In this document: positions 3,046 through 52,683 of the stretch, in pieces
How the letters are laid out: each line of letters opens with the position of its first letter
Position numbering within the stretch: the first letter of the stretch is position 1
Assembly: GCA_000787465.1 (NCBI GenBank)
Contig: JSYX01000164.1
Span: forward strand, 1-52,683
DNA length: 52,683 nt
Direction of reading: 5' to 3'
Source: Thermomucor indicae-seudaticae
Lineage: Eukaryota; Mucoromycota; Mucoromycetes; Mucorales; Lichtheimiaceae
Program-made: the position numbers and the translations under genes
Notes under the pieces: model-generated
The model's database searches: none
What the model was told of the DNA's origin: nothing
Seen by the model: the letters and a program-made list of their open reading frames with translations, nothing else

Positions 3046-6266
<3,221 letters not shown>

Positions 6267-36774: not shown

Positions 36775-39700
36775 ATGAATAGTACGGAACCTGCAAATAT
36801 ACCTACTTGGTCTGAAGGATTTCGCGCCTTGCACGACGCTCTTTGCCAGGCACGAGTCTCAACGTCGCCGTCAGCAGCAGACATACTTCAGCATCAATTA
36901 CAACTGAATAGAAAGAAGTTTCTCAATTTACTGGACGATGCTCCCAAAGACAATCAAGCGAGATCGACGCTACAAGGAGGTATACTTCAACTTTTTGACC
37001 GACGACTTCTACGTTTGCCAAAGCTCGACTGATCGAATAAATTGCAGGTAGAGCGTACATTGATCATAGAGCGCACAAAGTCAATGAGGATTTCGTAAAG
37101 GACGCTATATTTCTTTCGAATCAGCTGAATGTCAACGAGCATGTAGCAGCTACACTATTAATGAAAGGCATGACTGAGTCGACACGCGTCAATACCAACC
37201 CCATTGACACAGCAATACTGCTATATCACAACGAAAGAGAATATTTGCTTGCCAGCTTGGATGTTATACTTAATTCATGCAAAGACTCATCCGTGAGAGA
37301 GGACGTGCGCTTTGTGTTTCGCCAATTTGCTGCCGAGCTTCTGTACGAACGAGTGCCGTTGGATAATAAGCCTGGTGCTTCTTTGGTATCATTTGCCGAA
37401 AAAATTCTGCACACAACAAAAGTTCTCCATGATGCCATCAATACATTAACTTCCAGCGGAACGATACAGCAGCAGCAGCAGACAACTACAGTATCAACAA
37501 CCGGGGTTAACCAGTCTGGAAGTGTTACGGGTGGGCGGCTTGGTGAAGACATCACGGCGGCTTATATCGAACACTTGCAGGACCAACGCATATATCTCGC
37601 GCAAATCATTTACCATTTGGCATCAATGTTTTGGCTTGATGGCGATGACGTGTTGAAGCTGACGGAAATGTTGGAACAGTCAAAGTTGTCAGACATGATT
37701 GCGCCATATCTATTGCTGACGTTAGTCGCAGCCATATCGATAAGAAACCATAGTGCTGAAGAATTCCAGTACTCTATACCCCTTTATCGCAACGAAACTT
37801 TTCTGAAAAAGATGCACGAAAGACTTTCTCAGCAGCTATGGAAGGTACCAGCTGTCAAGGGCGTAGTTGTTCTGCAGTGGGTTCTGTTTCTGTCGCTGGC
37901 GTCTCAAATAGATGGAAGCATTGAATCTCGACTGCCAGCAAAAGAAGAGGAACTCGAAGAATTGGTCGAAGGTGCTGTTGGAAGCAAAGCATTCGAGTTT
38001 ATGAACGACTATCTGCTTTACTTTCAACAACCGTGCTACAGCATCGACACCGATCGCGGTCTATTCAAAACGTCTGTTTACGAAAATGTGGACACTACAC
38101 TTGACGGTCTTACAGTAGATCCAAGCGATTTTACAAAGTTTAATGCCGATATTCGTCCAGATTTTCGACAGTTTGTTGTGTACGAATTGGAACAATTGAC
38201 TGACGATTTCATCGAGAACTTGCAAAACACCTTGCGAAAACTGAAATATAAAGAAGAAGATAGCAGCAGTTCCTTCCAACAGCATTCGGTATCGAGGATC
38301 ACGGCCGCTACGACTAGTGATGAGGAGTTAAGCCCCTGTCGTGACCTGGAAGCATTCTATAACCTGCTGGCAACAATTTATCGGTACCGAATCAACTCTG
38401 GCTGGAAATTCTGGGATCGCGGCGACAGTCGCCTGTTTGCATTCATAAAGTGGACGACGGACATTAAAGTTCAGGGTACAGTATGTGCGTGCTATGACTT
38501 CCTCGCTTCCATTTCGACTGGACACATATGCGCACACCGCGCATTCAACTATTTGGATAACGGCACCAACCGCTCCGATTTGGCATCAAGTGGGTTATTT
38601 TCTTGGGGCAAACTGTTCGCTGCACTGCAGTTTTATGTGCCGCTAGTTAGCGGCGCTGGCGATGATTCACAAGCGACTATCCCACTGGATGAGGAAGCTC
38701 TGCTCAGGAGCTTCTTATATCTCCTGGAGGAAGTAGTGCAATACTCCTCGGAAGCACGGATAGCCCTTTATCAGGATAACGTTTTGCGAGCAGTTCCGAC
38801 GATCATTGAAGTCCTCAGTTGCCGGACACCTATAGAACTACGAGCGTCATTATACAATGTCCTTGCGGCGTTTTGCTCTCCTTGGGGCGGAGGCGTCGAA
38901 AACGTCGGGCGGACCATTGCAGGAGACATGTGGAGGGCTTTGGAGAAAGGCGATTTCTTTGTTCCGAAACCTGAAGTCGACTTCTCTGTGCAACAACAAG
39001 AGCTTCCGGGTCAGAGTAGCCTATTGCAACGCGACCAAAGAAAGATCTTGCGACGACGGGAGACTCAGAAACAGCCCGGTTATCTTCGCGAACTGGCAAG
39101 GGAGCGTTTATACAAGTCATATCCCGAAACTCTGGCAATCCTTAACCTTTTCGCATCAGCCATTCATACTAAAAGTAGACGTGAAGATCTGTTGGATGGG
39201 TTTGCGCCTTCGATATCGACTGTTCCATGGGACCTTGGTAAAGGTACCAGGACACCTGGCGCTGCTCCCTACATCTCATTAGTTATTGATCACATATTCC
39301 TTGCTCTGGAGTCGCAAGAATACATGCATCCCGGAAGTCGATGGCAGCTCGCCGAACTTTGTCTCAAGGTTCTGGAAAACTCTGTCCAGTCTTTTGATTT
39401 GCAACCTCTTGAAGAAAGGATTGCATGCTATACCAGCAAAATGAGTAAGCAGATCCCTAGCTACACTCTGGCACTGCAAGGAAAGGGCAATGTACCTAGT
39501 CAGCTGGGACCGGTCGAAGATTTGGAAGGTCTAGTTCTAAGCTATCTGGCGCATCCTGGCTTTACGATTTTCGTACGCATGCTCTCTGGGGATCGTCTCG
39601 TTCCGGAACTGCTCAAGATAGTTGAACGTGGGCCAGATGGCGTCATGGCAAAACAAGAGAAGTCGCCATACTTTATTGAATGCGTTGTTCGAAGCCTTCG

Positions 39701-42700
39701 GATTATCAAGACAGTGCTTGACAAGCAGGACGCGTTCTCCAACTTGCTTGTTCCGGCTATTAACAACTTATCAAACAAGGCGTCCTCTTCTGAACTCGGG
39801 GTCAAAGAATATACAATTTCACCGCTGCCATCATTGGTACCGTTCGGCCAACTTATGCTCTATCATGCAAATTCAATCGTACAAGTAGCACGTTTAGTAA
39901 ATTGCGAGGATAAAGCAGAGATTTGCTTCCTTAGCACCAAGATCTTGGAAGCATTGTCCAGCGAACCAAATGAGTCGAAACGTGCCATTCTTGGACGCAA
40001 CACGCGCACGGCCATGGGAGGTCTCGGTGTCAAACTTACAGGAGTCCTGCAAGGTTGCAAAGACGAGGCACAGATTTTGTATGGCTTTAGCGAGCGGATC
40101 GGCATCGATGACGCAGGGATAATGACGGCAGACGACTATGAGTACGATATCAACAATATCCCATTTTGGATGGCCACAAAGACACTGCAGGACAAGTATA
40201 ATCTCGAGGCGGCTTTCCAACCAAGGATGTCATGTTCAGTGCGCCTTGCGATAATCGACATGTTGCTCAAAAACTCTTCTCTAGAGAAACCCACGCCTTC
40301 GCTTTCGGACTTCGTTCTTGGCTATTCGACTTCATCATGGGCCACGACTACTCCTCAAGGATCTGAGCCAGCCGAAAAGTCTTTGATATGCTTCAAAGCA
40401 ATCTTAGATTTGATGCGACAAGGTATTCCAGTGGAGGGAACGGAGGAGACTTCGGAAACCAGGGCTCCATTGATCGCGACACATCCGATTCTGGCCGAGA
40501 AGTGCTACCAATTAATATATAAACTCTGTGCAAAAGTATCAACGTCGGCCACTACGATGCGTTACCTCAGAAGTAAGGAGCGATTCTTTTATGATCATTT
40601 CAAAGCATTGCCTGCACGCGTCGAGAGTTATCCACAAGTTACAGCACCGGTGTTCCCAGGACTGATGCTTTGTTCAGACGGGTCTCGTACAAAGATAGAC
40701 TTTTTCTCGTTGCGGTCACAGCTTCATCAGCGCGCCTGGTTACTGAAGTCTATTGCTTTGGAACTACATATGCTAGCCAACACGGGGCAGACATCCGAAA
40801 TCAAGCGAATGCTGGAGCTTTTGTACGGCCAGGGAGAGTTAAGGCTTGAGGAGGATGGCATGGACATGGATCTCGGTGAAAGAAACATCTTTTCGCTTCG
40901 GTCAAGTAGCATGGAACAACCGCTCGTGAAAATGTTGGAAATCGTCAGCTCTCTTGAGTTTGACTGGAGAGATGATTTGGCGGCGGGCATAACACAGGGC
41001 GAGTTCAAGTATTTCAAGGGATTCGATCCAGAAATCTATGAAACAGAAAATGATTACCAGTGTACTTTATACGACATACGGGGTGTATACAAAGTTCTAA
41101 GAAATCAGCAGGTGGCATTGTTCAACGCAGGCGAGATTGCGAACGACCAGGATAATAACGCGTTAGAAGAGGAGATGAGCCGGATTTTGCATACTCTTAT
41201 GGTGAAGAATCACCTCAGGGAAATAGCAGCCGGTAAACTGCATTGTCTCCGGGCTTGGAAGCAGGTCGTACAAGTGACACTGTCAGAGTGCTTTGATCTT
41301 TTGCCGGCCGAGACACGGGAAAAGATTATCTACGCGCTGATATCGGCGTTGCTACCCAAGATGAGACACACCGACGGAACAGATGCAGACATCCTGAAAG
41401 GATTTAGTGAAGTCATCTTGACCTTGTTGACACGTTTACTGGAAGACAAGCAGAGACAGGAGCTTCTAGAAGTGGTGCCGGCAGCAGACGTTCGACTTGC
41501 AGCACCTCGTTTGCCAGACGAGAAGCTACGGGCGATATTCATTGGTATCATTGAAAGTATCCTACAGGAAGGTACAACAATTGCTGTACGCGGCGACATG
41601 TATACCGCACTGGTGAACTTCTTGCGTTATGTGAGCTACTCGAACGATCAGACAGTAAAGGTGGAAAGCCAGTTCTTAGAACTTGTCGATGCGAACGAAA
41701 AGTTCCTCGATATCCTCTGCACAGATGCGAGCGACGGGTTAAACGTCTGGAAAACGACGGCTTACATCGCTTTGGATGCTCTGTATGTGCTGTCAAACAA
41801 AGCGAAAGCGCATGCGATACTGTCGTTCTTGGTACGCAAGAACTTTTTGCGATATAGTATTGATATGATCCGAAGAGAGGACATTGAGCTTGTGGGCATT
41901 CTTGAAAAGCCAAATGGCAAGTACCTTACCGAGTATTCTGTTACGATATATTAAGCTGATAGCGTCTTTTTATAGCATCACTGGTACCCCTTTACATCTA
42001 TGAAGCAAAGATGTCGTTGCTACTCCGGCTTGCGTTGTGCAAAGAAGGTGCTAAGTTATTATTGGAGAACCGGATAATCGATATCTTCAGCCACTGCCAC
42101 TTCCTTAACGCACGGCCCGAGTCAAATCTGGTCAATGGCGGTAAGCAGATGGACTTCATAACATAATGTGCAGAGCTTACTCATATAACTACCTTCTAGA
42201 CCATCCGGAGCTGACGGACAGCTTCATAGAAAACTATAACCGTCTGCTAATGCCGGCTTTGAAATTGATGTCCGCGTTATTGAATACTATAGGCCGAGTA
42301 AATACCGTCGTTTTGGAGAAGGTAAAGTCTATTCTGTTGTTCGACTTCAAATGACTAATGGACGATATTCAGGTCGAGGGCTGGGCAAGAAAGCAACAAG
42401 AAATGATGCTATCTATATTAAAGGACGACCAACGTCAGGTCACACTACCTTCCCTTGCGCAATTGAAGCTCGCCACATGTATTATGTATGCTTTGAGTTG
42501 CCGCTCCGGCTTCTTTGATGACCTGGTAAGTTCACAATTTCGCAAGCCGGCTAAACCGCCTTAACTTTATTTGCGCAATATGCAGGCGACTCGCGGCCTC
42601 CATCAGTTGAATACAGCTATGATGCAGCTTGTTGCCAAGTACCTGATAGCACAGAATATCGCGAGTCAGGTTGTACCAAGCTCTATGGAAGAAAGAGAAT

Positions 42701-49860: not shown

Positions 49861-51660
49861 CTATTGAAGTTTGTGTGCATAAACGCAGTAAAGGTTCATG
49901 AAGGCATAGTGCGTTTCCAGTTCTTCATCGACACGCTCCAAAATAGCCTTGAACCTTCGATTCGTCCATGGATCATAATAATCGCTATCATCATCATCGT
50001 CCTCGTCGTTATTATCTCTTCCATTCACAAACAAGGATGCAAAAAGACGCCGTAGCCGACTTTGCTGCTGCTTTTCTCCAGAATGGATCGATGCAACGAG
50101 TTCATGCAAATCGTCCCGGAACATGACACCCATGCGTCCACCCCACAAGCCTAAAGGCAGCGACTTGAACTTTGCATGATAAGCATCGCCATGTTGTTGG
50201 TGCATTTGCTGGACTAGTTCGTGGAAAAAGAAGAGGTCTTGCAGGTGCTGGACAAAGTCGGGATCAAGACCACGCTTTTTCATCAATTCAAGAACTAATA
50301 TTTGTTTAGACTACTGATAACGAATTTCAAGTGATCTGAGCATGCATACCTTGTTCGTTAAGCATCTGAGTGGTAGGTCCTATTACTGGATTGCCAAAGA
50401 TATGCATATCCAACTCGACAGCTTCGACAAACCCGTTTGGACGACAAAGACGCCAACATTCTTGAATGATTTCTCGGTAGATATCGGGTGGATATGAGAA
50501 AATCAGGAATCGGCAATAGATCAGATCGAATTGATTATCCGGCAAGTTCCTCAGGTCATGCAAAATGTCGCGTCGGGCTCGATAAAATCGAAAATTGCGG
50601 GGAAGACTTCGCCTGGCACTGACCATATTGCGGTCGTCAATTCCAAGAACCCAGCAATGCTTGTATGCCGTGGCCATCTCAATGCACCATGCTCCGTCTC
50701 CGCAACTATCATCATGAGAAATTTCGCGCCACCAAACCCCCTAACTCCGTTAAACTTACCCAACATGCAATATACGTCTCTTTTGAGAGCTATCCTTGAT
50801 ATCCAAAGGACTGCTAAACAGGCTATATATTGCATGAATTCCCCTTTCTGCTTGTTTGTGCCCTTTCCTGTTATAGTTTACCTTCCATCCATCGCTAAAC
50901 GCACTAACTCTTGACGCACAATCATACGATCAGCCCGCGGCCAGTCATCCTTGCAGCAAAACGATTCGTTTGAAGACGATTTAACCTTGGCGGACGGTTT
51001 CGGTCGCCGACAGGCATGTATCTGAACTTGTATCTGCCCCGATTGCTCCCAGCTTAGCCGTGAACTCGGTGGTGGCAGTGAAAACGCAGACGCTGGTCGA
51101 CGTCGAGCACTACTGGCATCCGATATTTCAGGAAAGCTGCTTCCCAGCCGATTGTACACATCCTCACTTCCGTCTTCTTCTTGCCGCTGGTGTTGGCCCA
51201 CAGATTTGTGATATAGCTCGGTCAAAACCAGACTGTTACGGTTCCGCCGCCCACCTGAAGAAGTTGAAAGCTCCTCGTCGTCGTCATCGTCATCGGCGTC
51301 GGCTGCTATGGAGGACCTCCAAGACGACGAGCAAAGAGTGTCTGGGGTTCCTGCCACTGACAAGGTAATGGAAGGGCGTCCTCTGGGAACGTTGATAGGC
51401 TCAACGAGTGACGGTGGTGGCAATGGCAGACTGCAAGGTGCTTTCAGATCGTAATCGTCCTCAGTATCATTATAGTAGCTCGAACAGGTACGTCTCGGAG
51501 GTACAGGTCGAGCGGGCGTTGTGTTGACATGTTGCTGCGGTGGAGGAGGTGGCGCGGTTGTCGAGTTGCCGTCATCGCTAATAGAAGAACTGCTTCGGCG
51601 TGTCCAGTTCGATATCCACGAAAACAGCCGTGGAGGCCCGCTTTTGTGTGGCAACGTCAT
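49861..51660 (-). CDS. SAM-dependent methyltransferase with long disordered N-terminus
   Basis: Class I methyltransferase; substrate unknown. Exons are 50882-51660, 50760-50810, 50350-50705 and 49861-50294; 539 aa. About 245 N-terminal residues are Ser/Pro/Asp-rich and probably disordered, with a DDDDDDEE run. The catalytic domain follows: ILHVGCGDGAWCIEMATAY (motif I, SAM binding), WVLGIDDRN (motif II Asp), LPDNQFDLIYCRFLIF (motif IV) and ECWRLCRPNGFVEAVELD (post-motif). The C-terminal part continues GLDPDFVQHLQDLFFFHELV, and an acidic loop precedes the final helices. The domain order resembles fungal LaeA/UMTA-like methyltransferases, but the family is too broad for a role. Exon 2 is only 51 nt and carries the residues just before motif I. 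Confidence 0.9.
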
Positions 51661-52392
51661 TTAGGTCGACATAAAGTAACAGAGACAGAGAGAGGGGAGA
51701 AGACGAGAGTATCTTCTAGGCTCTTTCTTTTTTAGCCGTCGCAACAGAAAAAAAAATTGGCTCCTGTGTCACCAACAAGACTTGATGACCCAAATCTTCC
51801 ATTGGGTTCTTGACTTTTTGGGAAAGGAGACAGCGCATCCTCAGCGGTATGACGTTGCTCCACATCTTTTCAATGTGTCACAGCTTTGAAGACGGTAGAG
51901 CTCGCCACTTCTCCACTTCAATTTATTCAAGATCTTTAGTCCTTTCTCTCGTTTGATCGGTGTAGCAAGTTCCATGCTACAGTTAAAACTTAGGACCAAA
52001 GTACCGGCTTCCTTTCCTTCCAGTTGATCTTGCGTTGCCCTGTGAGAAAAAAGTCAGAGGGATCTTACTCTTTAGGACTGTCATCGATTCGTGAATTTAG
52101 CAAAGCGACCAAGGAAATCAAGAACATAGATACTCGTCGATAAAGTTCTCGCACTTACGTAATAAGATACTCAATCGCACTTGATAAATGCAGGATCGCA
52201 AAAAATCGTATGGTCCTACAGATCAGCCATCAGCTAGACAGAAGGCACATAAGCCTGATAAAAAGAGAATTAGAGAGTAAGTCAATAGCTACAAATTGGA
52301 TCTAAAAGAGTGGTTGCCGTGGTAACAAATGCGCTGACGTCAAGCTCCCAGTAGGCTTGCCTAACAGTTATGGTGCCAGGCACCTATAAAGG
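51661..52392. other. Spacer holding the 3' flank of the Fanzor fragment
   Basis: No protein-coding feature. The left part is the methyltransferase promoter. The right part is the downstream flank of the Fanzor end; it contains a perfect 6-bp inverted repeat with one-base loop (GGTGCC A GGCACC, 52372-52384), eight bases beyond the Fanzor stop codon. Confidence 0.45.
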
Positions 52393-52683
52393 TCATAAGT
52401 TTAACAAACCGGCCAATGTCGAGATACAAGGCTGACCCACATAAGCGTCATAGCCATATTTGTTATGGCGAGTGAGTTTGATCCATTTGCTAGAATACCT
52501 GTTAAGCATAGATAGACTTTTCAAGAATCGAGGACTCACTTTTGTAAAGACACTGGGTCGCCCGCGACCTTGTGCAATTGCTTCGGCGATGTGATACATG
52601 TTGTTGCTCGCGTTTACGTCACGATTCCACATGGTTTTACAACCTGTGCAAGTCAAAATCGTATGCATCCTCGTGCCGTCCTC
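52393..52683 (-). CDS. Fanzor (eukaryotic TnpB homologue), C-terminal fragment
   Basis: RNA-guided nuclease family encoded in eukaryotic transposons. The protein enters from the right edge; about 96 residues are visible. The diagnostic end of the RuvC domain is present: TCTGCKTMWNRDVNASNNM, with one CxxC zinc-finger pair and the RD-x-NAS-x-N signature that contains the third RuvC Asp. It continues AIAQGRGRPSVF, as in the C-terminal ends of Mucorales Fanzors. Read without splicing the frame stops at 52393. Alternatively a 41-nt GT-AG intron (52499-52539) would give a stop at 52490, so the natural end is uncertain. The rest of the gene lies outside the window, so integrity and activity cannot be judged. 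Confidence 0.8.
   Translation of the reverse strand, partial: EDGTRMHTILTCTGCKTMWNRDVNASNNMYHIAEAIAQGRGRPSVFTKVSPRFLKSLSMLNRYSSKWIKLTRHNKYGYDAYVGQPCISTLAGLLNL

What the first reader, a model, noticed from the sequence alone, without database searches (positions are those of the whole stretch)
52393..52683. Fanzor RNA-guided nuclease gene at the window edge
The CxxC plus RD-x-NAS-x-N signature marks the end of a TnpB/Fanzor RuvC domain. Fanzors are programmable RNA-guided nucleases and each new host lineage adds diversity. The visible part has intact zinc-ligand and Asp positions, so the copy may be functional. Family assignment rests on the motif; the rest of the gene is unseen.
Basis: partly seen in the sequence, partly recalled or inferred. 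Interest (0 to 1): 0.75.

Follow-up and report, generated by a model that had tools for sequence, protein, structure and literature searches.

The report
Fungal transposon's RNA-guided nuclease, cut off
The right edge of this fungal contig carries the last piece of a Fanzor1 gene, a transposon-borne relative of CRISPR nucleases, together with the end of the transposon; it is a new copy of a known kind, whose likely guide RNA shows a possible new feature.

Summary
Window 52393-52683 (minus) encodes the C-terminal end of a Fanzor1 protein: second zinc pair CTGC, WNRD of RuvC-III, then GRPSVF. The window is a whole contig of a 24.8-Mb genome and stops there, so RuvC-I, RuvC-II and the first zinc pair of this copy are unseen. 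Paralogues in the genome supply them. A profile built mainly from database relatives and paralogues finds Spizellomyces Fanzor1 at E = 4e-15. Two near-identical copies (97-98%) also break at contig ends; many others look decayed.

New here: the element's right end (52369-52395) contains a palindrome, overlaps the stop codon and is followed by TA. An inverted left end lies about 1 kb before a Fanzor remnant on C200, and both ends flank a ~570-bp element on C393. Two stem-loops before the right end resemble a two-stem Fanzor1 guide RNA. In about a dozen copies the stretch after the first stem or stems looks like a 42-69 nt spliceosomal intron.

Verdict: new member of a known kind. Whether this copy works cannot be told. 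The intron-split guide RNA is the interesting open possibility; only RNA data can settle it.

The parts
52393..52683 (-). C-terminal end of the Fanzor1 coding sequence (part of the last exon; 5' side cut by the contig end; stop codon TGA 52393-52395)
   Evidence: TNB profile A2 finds Spizellomyces Fanzor1 E 1.9e-6
52639..52650 (-). CTGC, second zinc-ligand pair of the C4 ribbon (the first pair is off the contig)
   Evidence: coordinates; both Cys invariant in 11 of 11 aligned rows
52618..52623 (-). Arg-Asp of RuvC-III (WNRD), the third catalytic acid
   Evidence: R and D invariant in 11 of 11 rows; five residues between the last Cys and RD, as in the published Fanzor motif X(5,50) (PMC3627910 abstract)
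52546..52563 (-). GRPSVF tail motif, shared with Spizellomyces Fanzor1 (GRPEVF)
   Evidence: alignment
52534..52539 (-). GTGAGT, a possible 5' splice site inside the open frame (would change the C-terminus); unproven
   Evidence: sequence; also present in the 72%-identical C237 copy
52453..52469 (-). candidate guide-RNA stem-loop 1, GCCATA-ACAAA-TATGGC, inside the open frame
   Evidence: folds at -7.2 kcal/mol; at the matching place C263 and C200 have CTCGT/ACGAG and C238 has CTAAT/ATTAG
52384..52440 (-). 57-nt intron-like stretch between the two stem-loops (GTGGGT...TTTATAG), unproven
   Evidence: the same place reads GTAAGA...TTTTAG in C238 and GTGTGT...TATAG in C237 and C195
52372..52384 (-). 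candidate guide-RNA stem-loop 2, GGTGC-CTG-GCACC, at the element's end
   Evidence: stem identical and loop different (ATC) in C237, C263 and C238
52369..52395 (-). right terminal inverted repeat TGACCTTTATAGGTGCCTGGCACCA plus TA (52369-52370, presumed target duplication); its first three bases are the stop codon
   Evidence: end of homology; 5 of 5 exact genome matches of the end motif lie next to a Fanzor C-terminus; inverted copy at the left end in C200 and C393

Best explanation
This is the 3' end of a Fanzor1 gene inside a TIR DNA transposon of a fungus, probably mucoralean. The protein would be an RNA-guided DNA nuclease: WED/REC hold the guide, RuvC cuts, and the zinc (TNB) domain seen here supports RuvC and the RNA. 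The guide RNA would be transcribed from the last coding bases through the right inverted repeat, with stem-loop 1 then stem-loop 2, and would take its guide from whatever DNA lies beyond the element's end. So each insertion would aim at its own locus, and cutting the empty site would let repair recopy the element. Shown by sequence: Fanzor1 family, the element's right end, left ends in other copies, conserved hairpins, several near-identical copies. Inferred from published Fanzors and TnpBs: nuclease activity, guide RNA, copying back. Not determinable here: whether this copy is intact upstream. The genome keeps about 71 Fanzor-like places, many of them short or stop-bearing (not counted).
For: Own-genome hits: PF07282 37 places, 35 over the cut-off; window protein 45 places. 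RuvC-I DPG, RuvC-II and RuvC-III in paralogues C288, C616 and C4 (in C288 and C4 they lie in different frames, in C616 in one frame with stops). Named relative P0006 (Apophysomyces, 352 aa) has VDPG, MDEYLTSQVCNNC and CKHCGVLWQRD and aligns to the window at 40% over 48 aa. Family profile to Spizellomyces Fanzor1 4.2e-15. Foldseek with a weak P0006 model: the four hits at E <= 0.001 are all Spizellomyces Fanzor, the next is E 1.1. Element end shared at 97, 98 and 72% identity with unrelated flanks. End motif: 10 genome matches at up to two mismatches, 5 exact, all 5 beside a Fanzor C-terminus; the reversed control gives 4 at up to two mismatches. Left inverted repeat (2 mismatches of 24) about 1 kb before a Fanzor remnant in C200; facing ends (4 mismatches each) 570 bp apart in C393.
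Against: RuvC-I, RuvC-II and the first CxxC of this copy are unseen. Window protein alone is below Pfam's cut-off and E 0.054 to the PDB Fanzor. The 135-nt right end does not fold better than shuffles overall (z -1.19, 21 of 200 shuffles as good), and no Rfam family matches. The P0006 model has mean pLDDT 57.5 and TM-scores about 0.2. No purifying selection is visible between window and C253. No transposase was searched for or seen.
Confidence: 0.88

Rival explanations
1. The window copy is a dead remnant: a truncated or frameshifted Fanzor1, like many copies in this genome.
For: Many copies show stops, frameshifts or missing upstream parts on reading (not counted). 7 of 9 codon differences to C253 are replacements and C253 is frameshifted.
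Against: Zinc pair, Asp, tail motif and right end are intact. Window, C253 and C195 all break at contig ends, as young repeats do; 17 of 56 Fanzor hits (56 of about 71, those with a known contig length, these three included) lie within 700 nt of a contig end against 4% expected.
Confidence: 0.5
2. It is a TnpB or an IS607-type Fanzor2, not Fanzor1.
For: The zinc ribbon alone is shared by all of them; the TNB profile A2 also finds LaTranC at 4.6e-6.
Against: Profile A3 finds three Fanzor1 structures and no TnpB at E <= 1. The TDG motif called characteristic of Fanzor1 (PMC10711439, passages) stands in 8 of the 10 A3 rows that cover it and in paralogues C288, C616 and C248. The element has inverted ends, which IS607 elements lack (PMC6188088, abstract start in search listing).
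Confidence: 0.04
3. It is another C4 zinc protein, for instance a nuclear-receptor-type finger.
For: zf-C4 is the second Pfam hit, E 0.12; glucocorticoid receptor fingers appear at E 0.086 in the TNB profile search.
Against: Spizellomyces Fanzor1 beats them by more than four orders of magnitude, and RuvC exons precede the same zinc exon in paralogues.
Confidence: 0.01
4. The two hairpins are only DNA sites for a transposase, or a hairpin in the mRNA; there is no guide RNA.
For: Stem-loop 2 is part of the inverted repeat. No RNA data are held here. The right end as a whole is not unusually stable.
Against: Published Fanzor1 guide RNAs include the right inverted repeat (PMC10432273 section 7; PMC10711439 passages). 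A stem at the stem-loop-1 position covaries across the wider clade: 13 of 15 perfect against a shuffle mean of 3.5, 0 of 20000 shuffles as good, arms chosen by hand; a mechanical version was weaker.
Confidence: 0.15

Closest known systems
Spizellomyces punctatus Fanzor1 (SpuFz1, PDB 8GKH) and its Spu-1 elements
   Same: Family profile match 4.2e-15; WNRD..NM..GRPxVF tail; guide RNA from the right inverted repeat; many partial copies and short elements without the gene (PMC10432273 section 7).
   Different: Spu-1 has 30-nt IRs preceded by CA and a single ORF; here the ends are TGGTGC... next to TA, the gene appears to have introns, and the open frame runs into the inverted repeat.
Fanzor1 elements of Mucor, Rhizopus and Phycomyces
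   Same: Same host group by nearest relatives; Fanzor1 reported there (PMC3627910, passages).
   Different: [quoted passage not shown] this one has TA-flanked palindromic ends. I had no sequences to compare the ends.
Parasitella parasitica Fanzor1 (PpFz1) guide RNA
   Same: Two stem-loops, SL1 and SL2, then the guide (PMC11423790 section 5).
   Different: Here the two stems are 68 nt apart in the DNA, possibly by an intron.
IStrons (IS elements with a group I intron)
   Same: A transposon combined with an intron (PMC4227781, abstract start in search listing).
   Different: Bacterial, self-splicing group I intron; here the signals look spliceosomal and sit in the candidate guide RNA.

Membership tests
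Fanzor1 | C4 zinc ribbon followed by RD within 5-50 residues (motif of PMC3627910) | tested here: met
   Second CxxC, five residues, RD in the window; both CxxC pairs in 9 of 10 paralogue rows, the tenth row starting after the first pair. The first CxxC of the window copy is unseen.
Fanzor1 | RuvC-I Asp (DPG) and RuvC-II Glu before the ribbon | tested here: inconclusive
   Off the contig for the window copy; present in paralogues C288, C616, C4 and in P0006.
Fanzor1 | TDG motif in WED | tested here: inconclusive
   Off the contig here; of the 10 A3 rows covering it 8 read TDG, one SDG (P0006) and one TNG (L055).
Fanzor1 | Sequence closer to Fanzor1 than to TnpB or Fanzor2 | tested here: met
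   A3 profile: Fanzor1 structures at 4.2e-15, 0.017 and 0.13, no TnpB at E <= 1. No Fanzor2 chain was seen in the hit lists, so Fanzor2 was not compared directly.
Fanzor1 | PF07282 above its curated cut-off | tested here: not met
   19.2 against 26.3 bits for the truncated window piece; 35 of 37 PF07282 hits in the genome pass. This reflects truncation.
Fanzor1 | Carried by a eukaryotic DNA transposon | tested here: met
   Shared right end with TA; inverted left end in C200 and C393. Superfamily and transposase not identified.
Fanzor1 | Guide RNA from the right end | not testable with these tools
   No RNA data; two candidate stem-loops only.
Fanzor1 | RNA-guided cleavage | not testable with these tools
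   Bench test needed.
Fanzor2 / IS607 | Serine-recombinase TnpA in the same element | not tested
   No search for TnpA was run.

The most novel reading that the evidence does not exclude
In this fungus the Fanzor guide RNA is split by a spliceosomal intron: stem-loop 1 lies in one exon, the guide-proximal part and the guide in the next, so a working nuclease RNA would need the host spliceosome. The window's own element would have such an intron at 52384-52440. This would tie transposon activity to host splicing, like a eukaryotic counterpart of bacterial IStrons.
Probability: 0.25. Interest if true: 0.78.

Novelty: new member of a known kind. Interest (0 to 1): 0.42.

Why it matters
A genome with about 71 Fanzor-like places, at least two lineages, near-identical copies and visible element ends is useful material for asking what Fanzor does for its transposon. 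The conserved right-end hairpins give a direct guide-RNA hypothesis. If the intron is real, guide-RNA maturation by splicing would be a new layer in the biology of eukaryotic RNA-guided nucleases, and a practical point for anyone cloning such guide RNAs from genomic DNA.

Tried and rejected
Other zinc families: rejected. Extending the contig: impossible. Finding the missing 5' part by a 26-base pattern near the contig's end, up to 3 mismatches: only the window and C253 match, so the middle of the young copies is probably collapsed or missing in the assembly. Protein search with the 96-aa piece: 1 candidate, none scored. Full-length search with the C591 protein: only its own near-duplicate, 99% identical. 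One exon of a paralogue against the PDB: two hits that look like chance, E 0.21 and 0.51. P0006 against the PDB gave TALE proteins at 1e-4 (weak repeated matches, no single stretch passing) above a viral TnpB-like protein (1.8e-4) and Spizellomyces Fanzor (0.0031); I read the TALE hits as chance. Structure of P0006: weak, mean pLDDT 57.5. Rfam: none. A fixed-column test of the hairpin with 5-nt arms was weaker than the hand-aligned one: best register 10 of 15 perfect, shuffle mean 4.8, maximum 10 in 5000 shuffles; the other four registers 5, 5, 9 and 6. Genome-wide patterns for the putative second guide-RNA exon were not enriched over the reversed pattern: 8 against 10, and 11 against 13. A search for exon-junction hairpins over all candidate splice sites gave many alternatives per locus and had no shuffle control, so I do not use it as proof. 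Papers: 'Fanzor' with 'intron' and 'splic' gave 22 papers, 15 listed, none about an intron in a guide RNA by title or the abstract starts shown. 'intron' occurs 0 times in the main text of PMC10432273, PMC10711439, PMC11423790 and PMC3627910. Most subscription papers, and the 2023 Science Advances survey of Fanzors (recalled, not in the listings), are not in the library, so this is no proof of novelty.

Full report
What was checked. The window is the whole of contig C141 in a 24.8-Mb, 735-contig genome. The reported frame exists, minus strand, 52393-52683, open at the contig edge. It shows CTGC, WNRDVNASNN and GRPSVF. Pfam's best match is the TnpB/Cas12f zinc domain PF07282 at E 0.0014, below the curated cut-off because only its last third is matched.

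Family. The same genome holds 37 PF07282 places, 35 over the cut-off, and 45 places matched by the window protein, itself included. By my own comparison of the two lists 11 places are shared, so about 71 are distinct; the weakest may be chance. Many frames are short, stop-bearing or lack upstream parts on reading (not counted). Within the window's clade, C288, C616 and C4:2443-2637 show a DPG RuvC-I and a NEYLTS, SERYTS or DEYFTS RuvC-II, in different frames or with stops, then, after an interruption that I read as an intron, the exon with both CxxC pairs and RD; P0006 reads straight through that point as TSQVCNNC. A separate lineage at C591 has an open frame of 677 aa (621 aa lie in the fetched locus), with GVDSG, VNEYFTS and a zinc domain. 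A 202-aa exon of the C4 copy finds 10 proteins in the public set, including Apophysomyces ossiformis P0006 (47%) and Cokeromyces recurvatus P0011 (32%); P0006 runs from WED to the tail with all three RuvC motifs. The 18-row family profile finds Spizellomyces Fanzor1 at 4.2e-15, Parasitella Fanzor1 at 0.017 and Guillardia Fanzor1 at 0.13; the other five of eight hits are dUTPases at 0.034-0.039. Foldseek with a weak model of P0006 gives Spizellomyces Fanzor as the only four hits under 0.001.

Age and state of this copy. C253 (97%) and C195 (98%) share the same end and also break at a contig end inside the gene. 17 of 56 Fanzor hits (those of the 71 with a known contig length) lie within 700 nt of a contig end; about 4% would be expected. 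This points to several young copies that defeated the assembly. Against a protected gene: of nine codon differences between window and C253 two are silent, seven change the residue (the last beside a deletion), and C253 has a 1-nt deletion near its end. Function of the window copy cannot be judged.

The element. Homology between window, C253 and C195 stops at the same base, after ...GGCACCATA, with unrelated flanks, and the 72%-identical C237 copy stops within two bases of it. The pattern TTTATAGGTGCnnnGCACCAnA has five exact matches in the genome, all beside a Fanzor C-terminus (C141, C195, C237, C253, C263). At two mismatches five more appear, of which C238 lies directly beside a decayed Fanzor and C200 faces one; the reversed control gives four matches at up to two mismatches. 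A wider scan of 38 sequences (the window and 37 fetched loci, some of them overlapping) found the inverted end, 2 mismatches of 24, about 1 kb before the Fanzor remnant on C200, and a pair of facing ends, 4 mismatches each, 570 bp from outer end to outer end on C393; 20 shuffles of the window gave none at up to 6 mismatches. No Fanzor match on C393 is in the printed part of the search of that locus, whose list was cut. TA follows the right end in 6 of 7 copies read by me (C237 has CA; the C393 end reads AA and is not among the seven) and precedes the left end in both. So this is a TIR transposon, probably TA-duplicating. In 7 of the 12 groups of related copies compared, the window's included, the shared sequence ends in or at TA. 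The stop codon of the window frame is the first three bases of the inverted repeat.

Candidate guide RNA. Between tail motif and end lie GCCATA-ACAAA-TATGGC (52453-52469) and GGTGC-CTG-GCACC (52372-52384). Copies sharing the right end keep both with changed letters: C263 and C200 CTCGT/ACGAG, C238 CTAAT/ATTAG for the first; loop ATC instead of CTG for the second in C237, C263 and C238 (the first stem is altered in C237 and the second decayed in C200). In the wider clade a hairpin at the stop codon has arms ACCC/GGGT, TCCC/GGGA, TCTC/GAGA, TCTT/AAGA and TCCT/AGGA: 13 of 15 copies pair perfectly over four positions, shuffle mean 3.5, no shuffle of 20000 as good; by distinct types 5 of 7 pair perfectly against 3 of 42 crosses (arms aligned by hand; the mechanical version was weaker). 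The C591-type lineage has a different first stem, CCnGG...CCnGG: the middle pair is A-T in three copies (one lineage pair among them), T-A in one and T-G in one, while three others (C640, C165, C215) pair imperfectly in that register. Spizellomyces and Parasitella Fanzor1 guide RNAs likewise have SL1, SL2, then the guide (PMC11423790 section 5), and the Spizellomyces RNA ends in flanking sequence beyond the right repeat (PMC10432273 section 7). Against: the window's 135-nt end is not unusually stable (z -1.19), and there are no RNA data.

A possible intron in it. After the hairpins a number of copies read TACG, TACAG, TACT or TATG followed by GTAAG, GTGAG or GCAAG, then a stretch of 42-69 nt in all that closes with CTGAC, CTGAT or CTAAT and an AG; in most of those that I read by eye a short segment such as TCTTCGGACTGGTAAG follows. 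A pattern for these signals occurs downstream of the zinc domain in 12 of 56 loci, in 0 of 54 farther downstream, 1 of 37 upstream and 0 of 56 on the other strand; the pattern was drawn up from these same loci, so this is not an independent test. C640 lacks the stretch precisely: GGCGTACAG is followed at once by GCTTCGGCTTGGCAAG, where C645 has GGCGTACAG|gtgagt...tatatag|TCTTCGAGATTGGTAAG; joined, 22 of 26 columns agree, and 1 of 20000 shuffles of the short segment scores as well. Between C198 and C587 the stretch is 55 and 42 nt long with 37 identical columns of 55, while the 60 nt before it agree at 56 of 60 and the 30 nt after at 26 of 31 columns. In the window group the same place reads GTAAGA...TTTTAG (C238), GTGTGT...TATAG (C237, C195) and GTGGGT...TATAG (window, C263), 57-61 nt counted by eye; C253 has a deletion at the first site. 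Against: branch signals are poor in the window group; in C198 and C587 the shared sequence continues about 230-250 nt beyond the short segment, so it is unclear where a guide would begin; the segment's GGTAAG could itself be a further 5' splice site; the genome-wide search for the segment was not enriched. I give it one chance in four.

Verdict. A new copy of Fanzor1 in a host group where Fanzor1 is known. What raises it above routine is the defined element end, the hairpins and the testable intron.

Noticed in passing
L010:1-1866 (C591, ends near 3783): An intact-looking second Fanzor lineage, open frame of 677 aa in the genome, with GVDSG, VNEYFTS and a full zinc domain; a 99% identical protein is in the public set.
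   Followed up: partly
L078:953-1522 (C393): A ~570-bp element with both inverted repeats of the window's transposon and no Fanzor match seen in the printed list, like the 'ghost' elements reported in Spizellomyces.
   Followed up: partly
L026 (C640) compared with L015, L019, L027, L033: Presence and precise absence of an intron-like stretch downstream of Fanzor stop codons, with conserved splice-like signals.
   Followed up: partly
L052, L056, L068, L019, L059: Several Fanzor copies end in ...CAG or ...AAG followed by TA, a different terminal type from the window's element, perhaps Tc1/mariner-like; L059 also has an internal inverted repeat near its end.
   Followed up: no
window 37161-41954: Nup192-type nucleoporin gene, 1597-aa open frame, E 1.8e-185: an ordinary eukaryotic gene, so the contig is eukaryotic.
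   Followed up: no
window 3046-4623 and 50327-50677: C-terminal part of an alanyl-tRNA synthetase and a methyltransferase exon.
   Followed up: no
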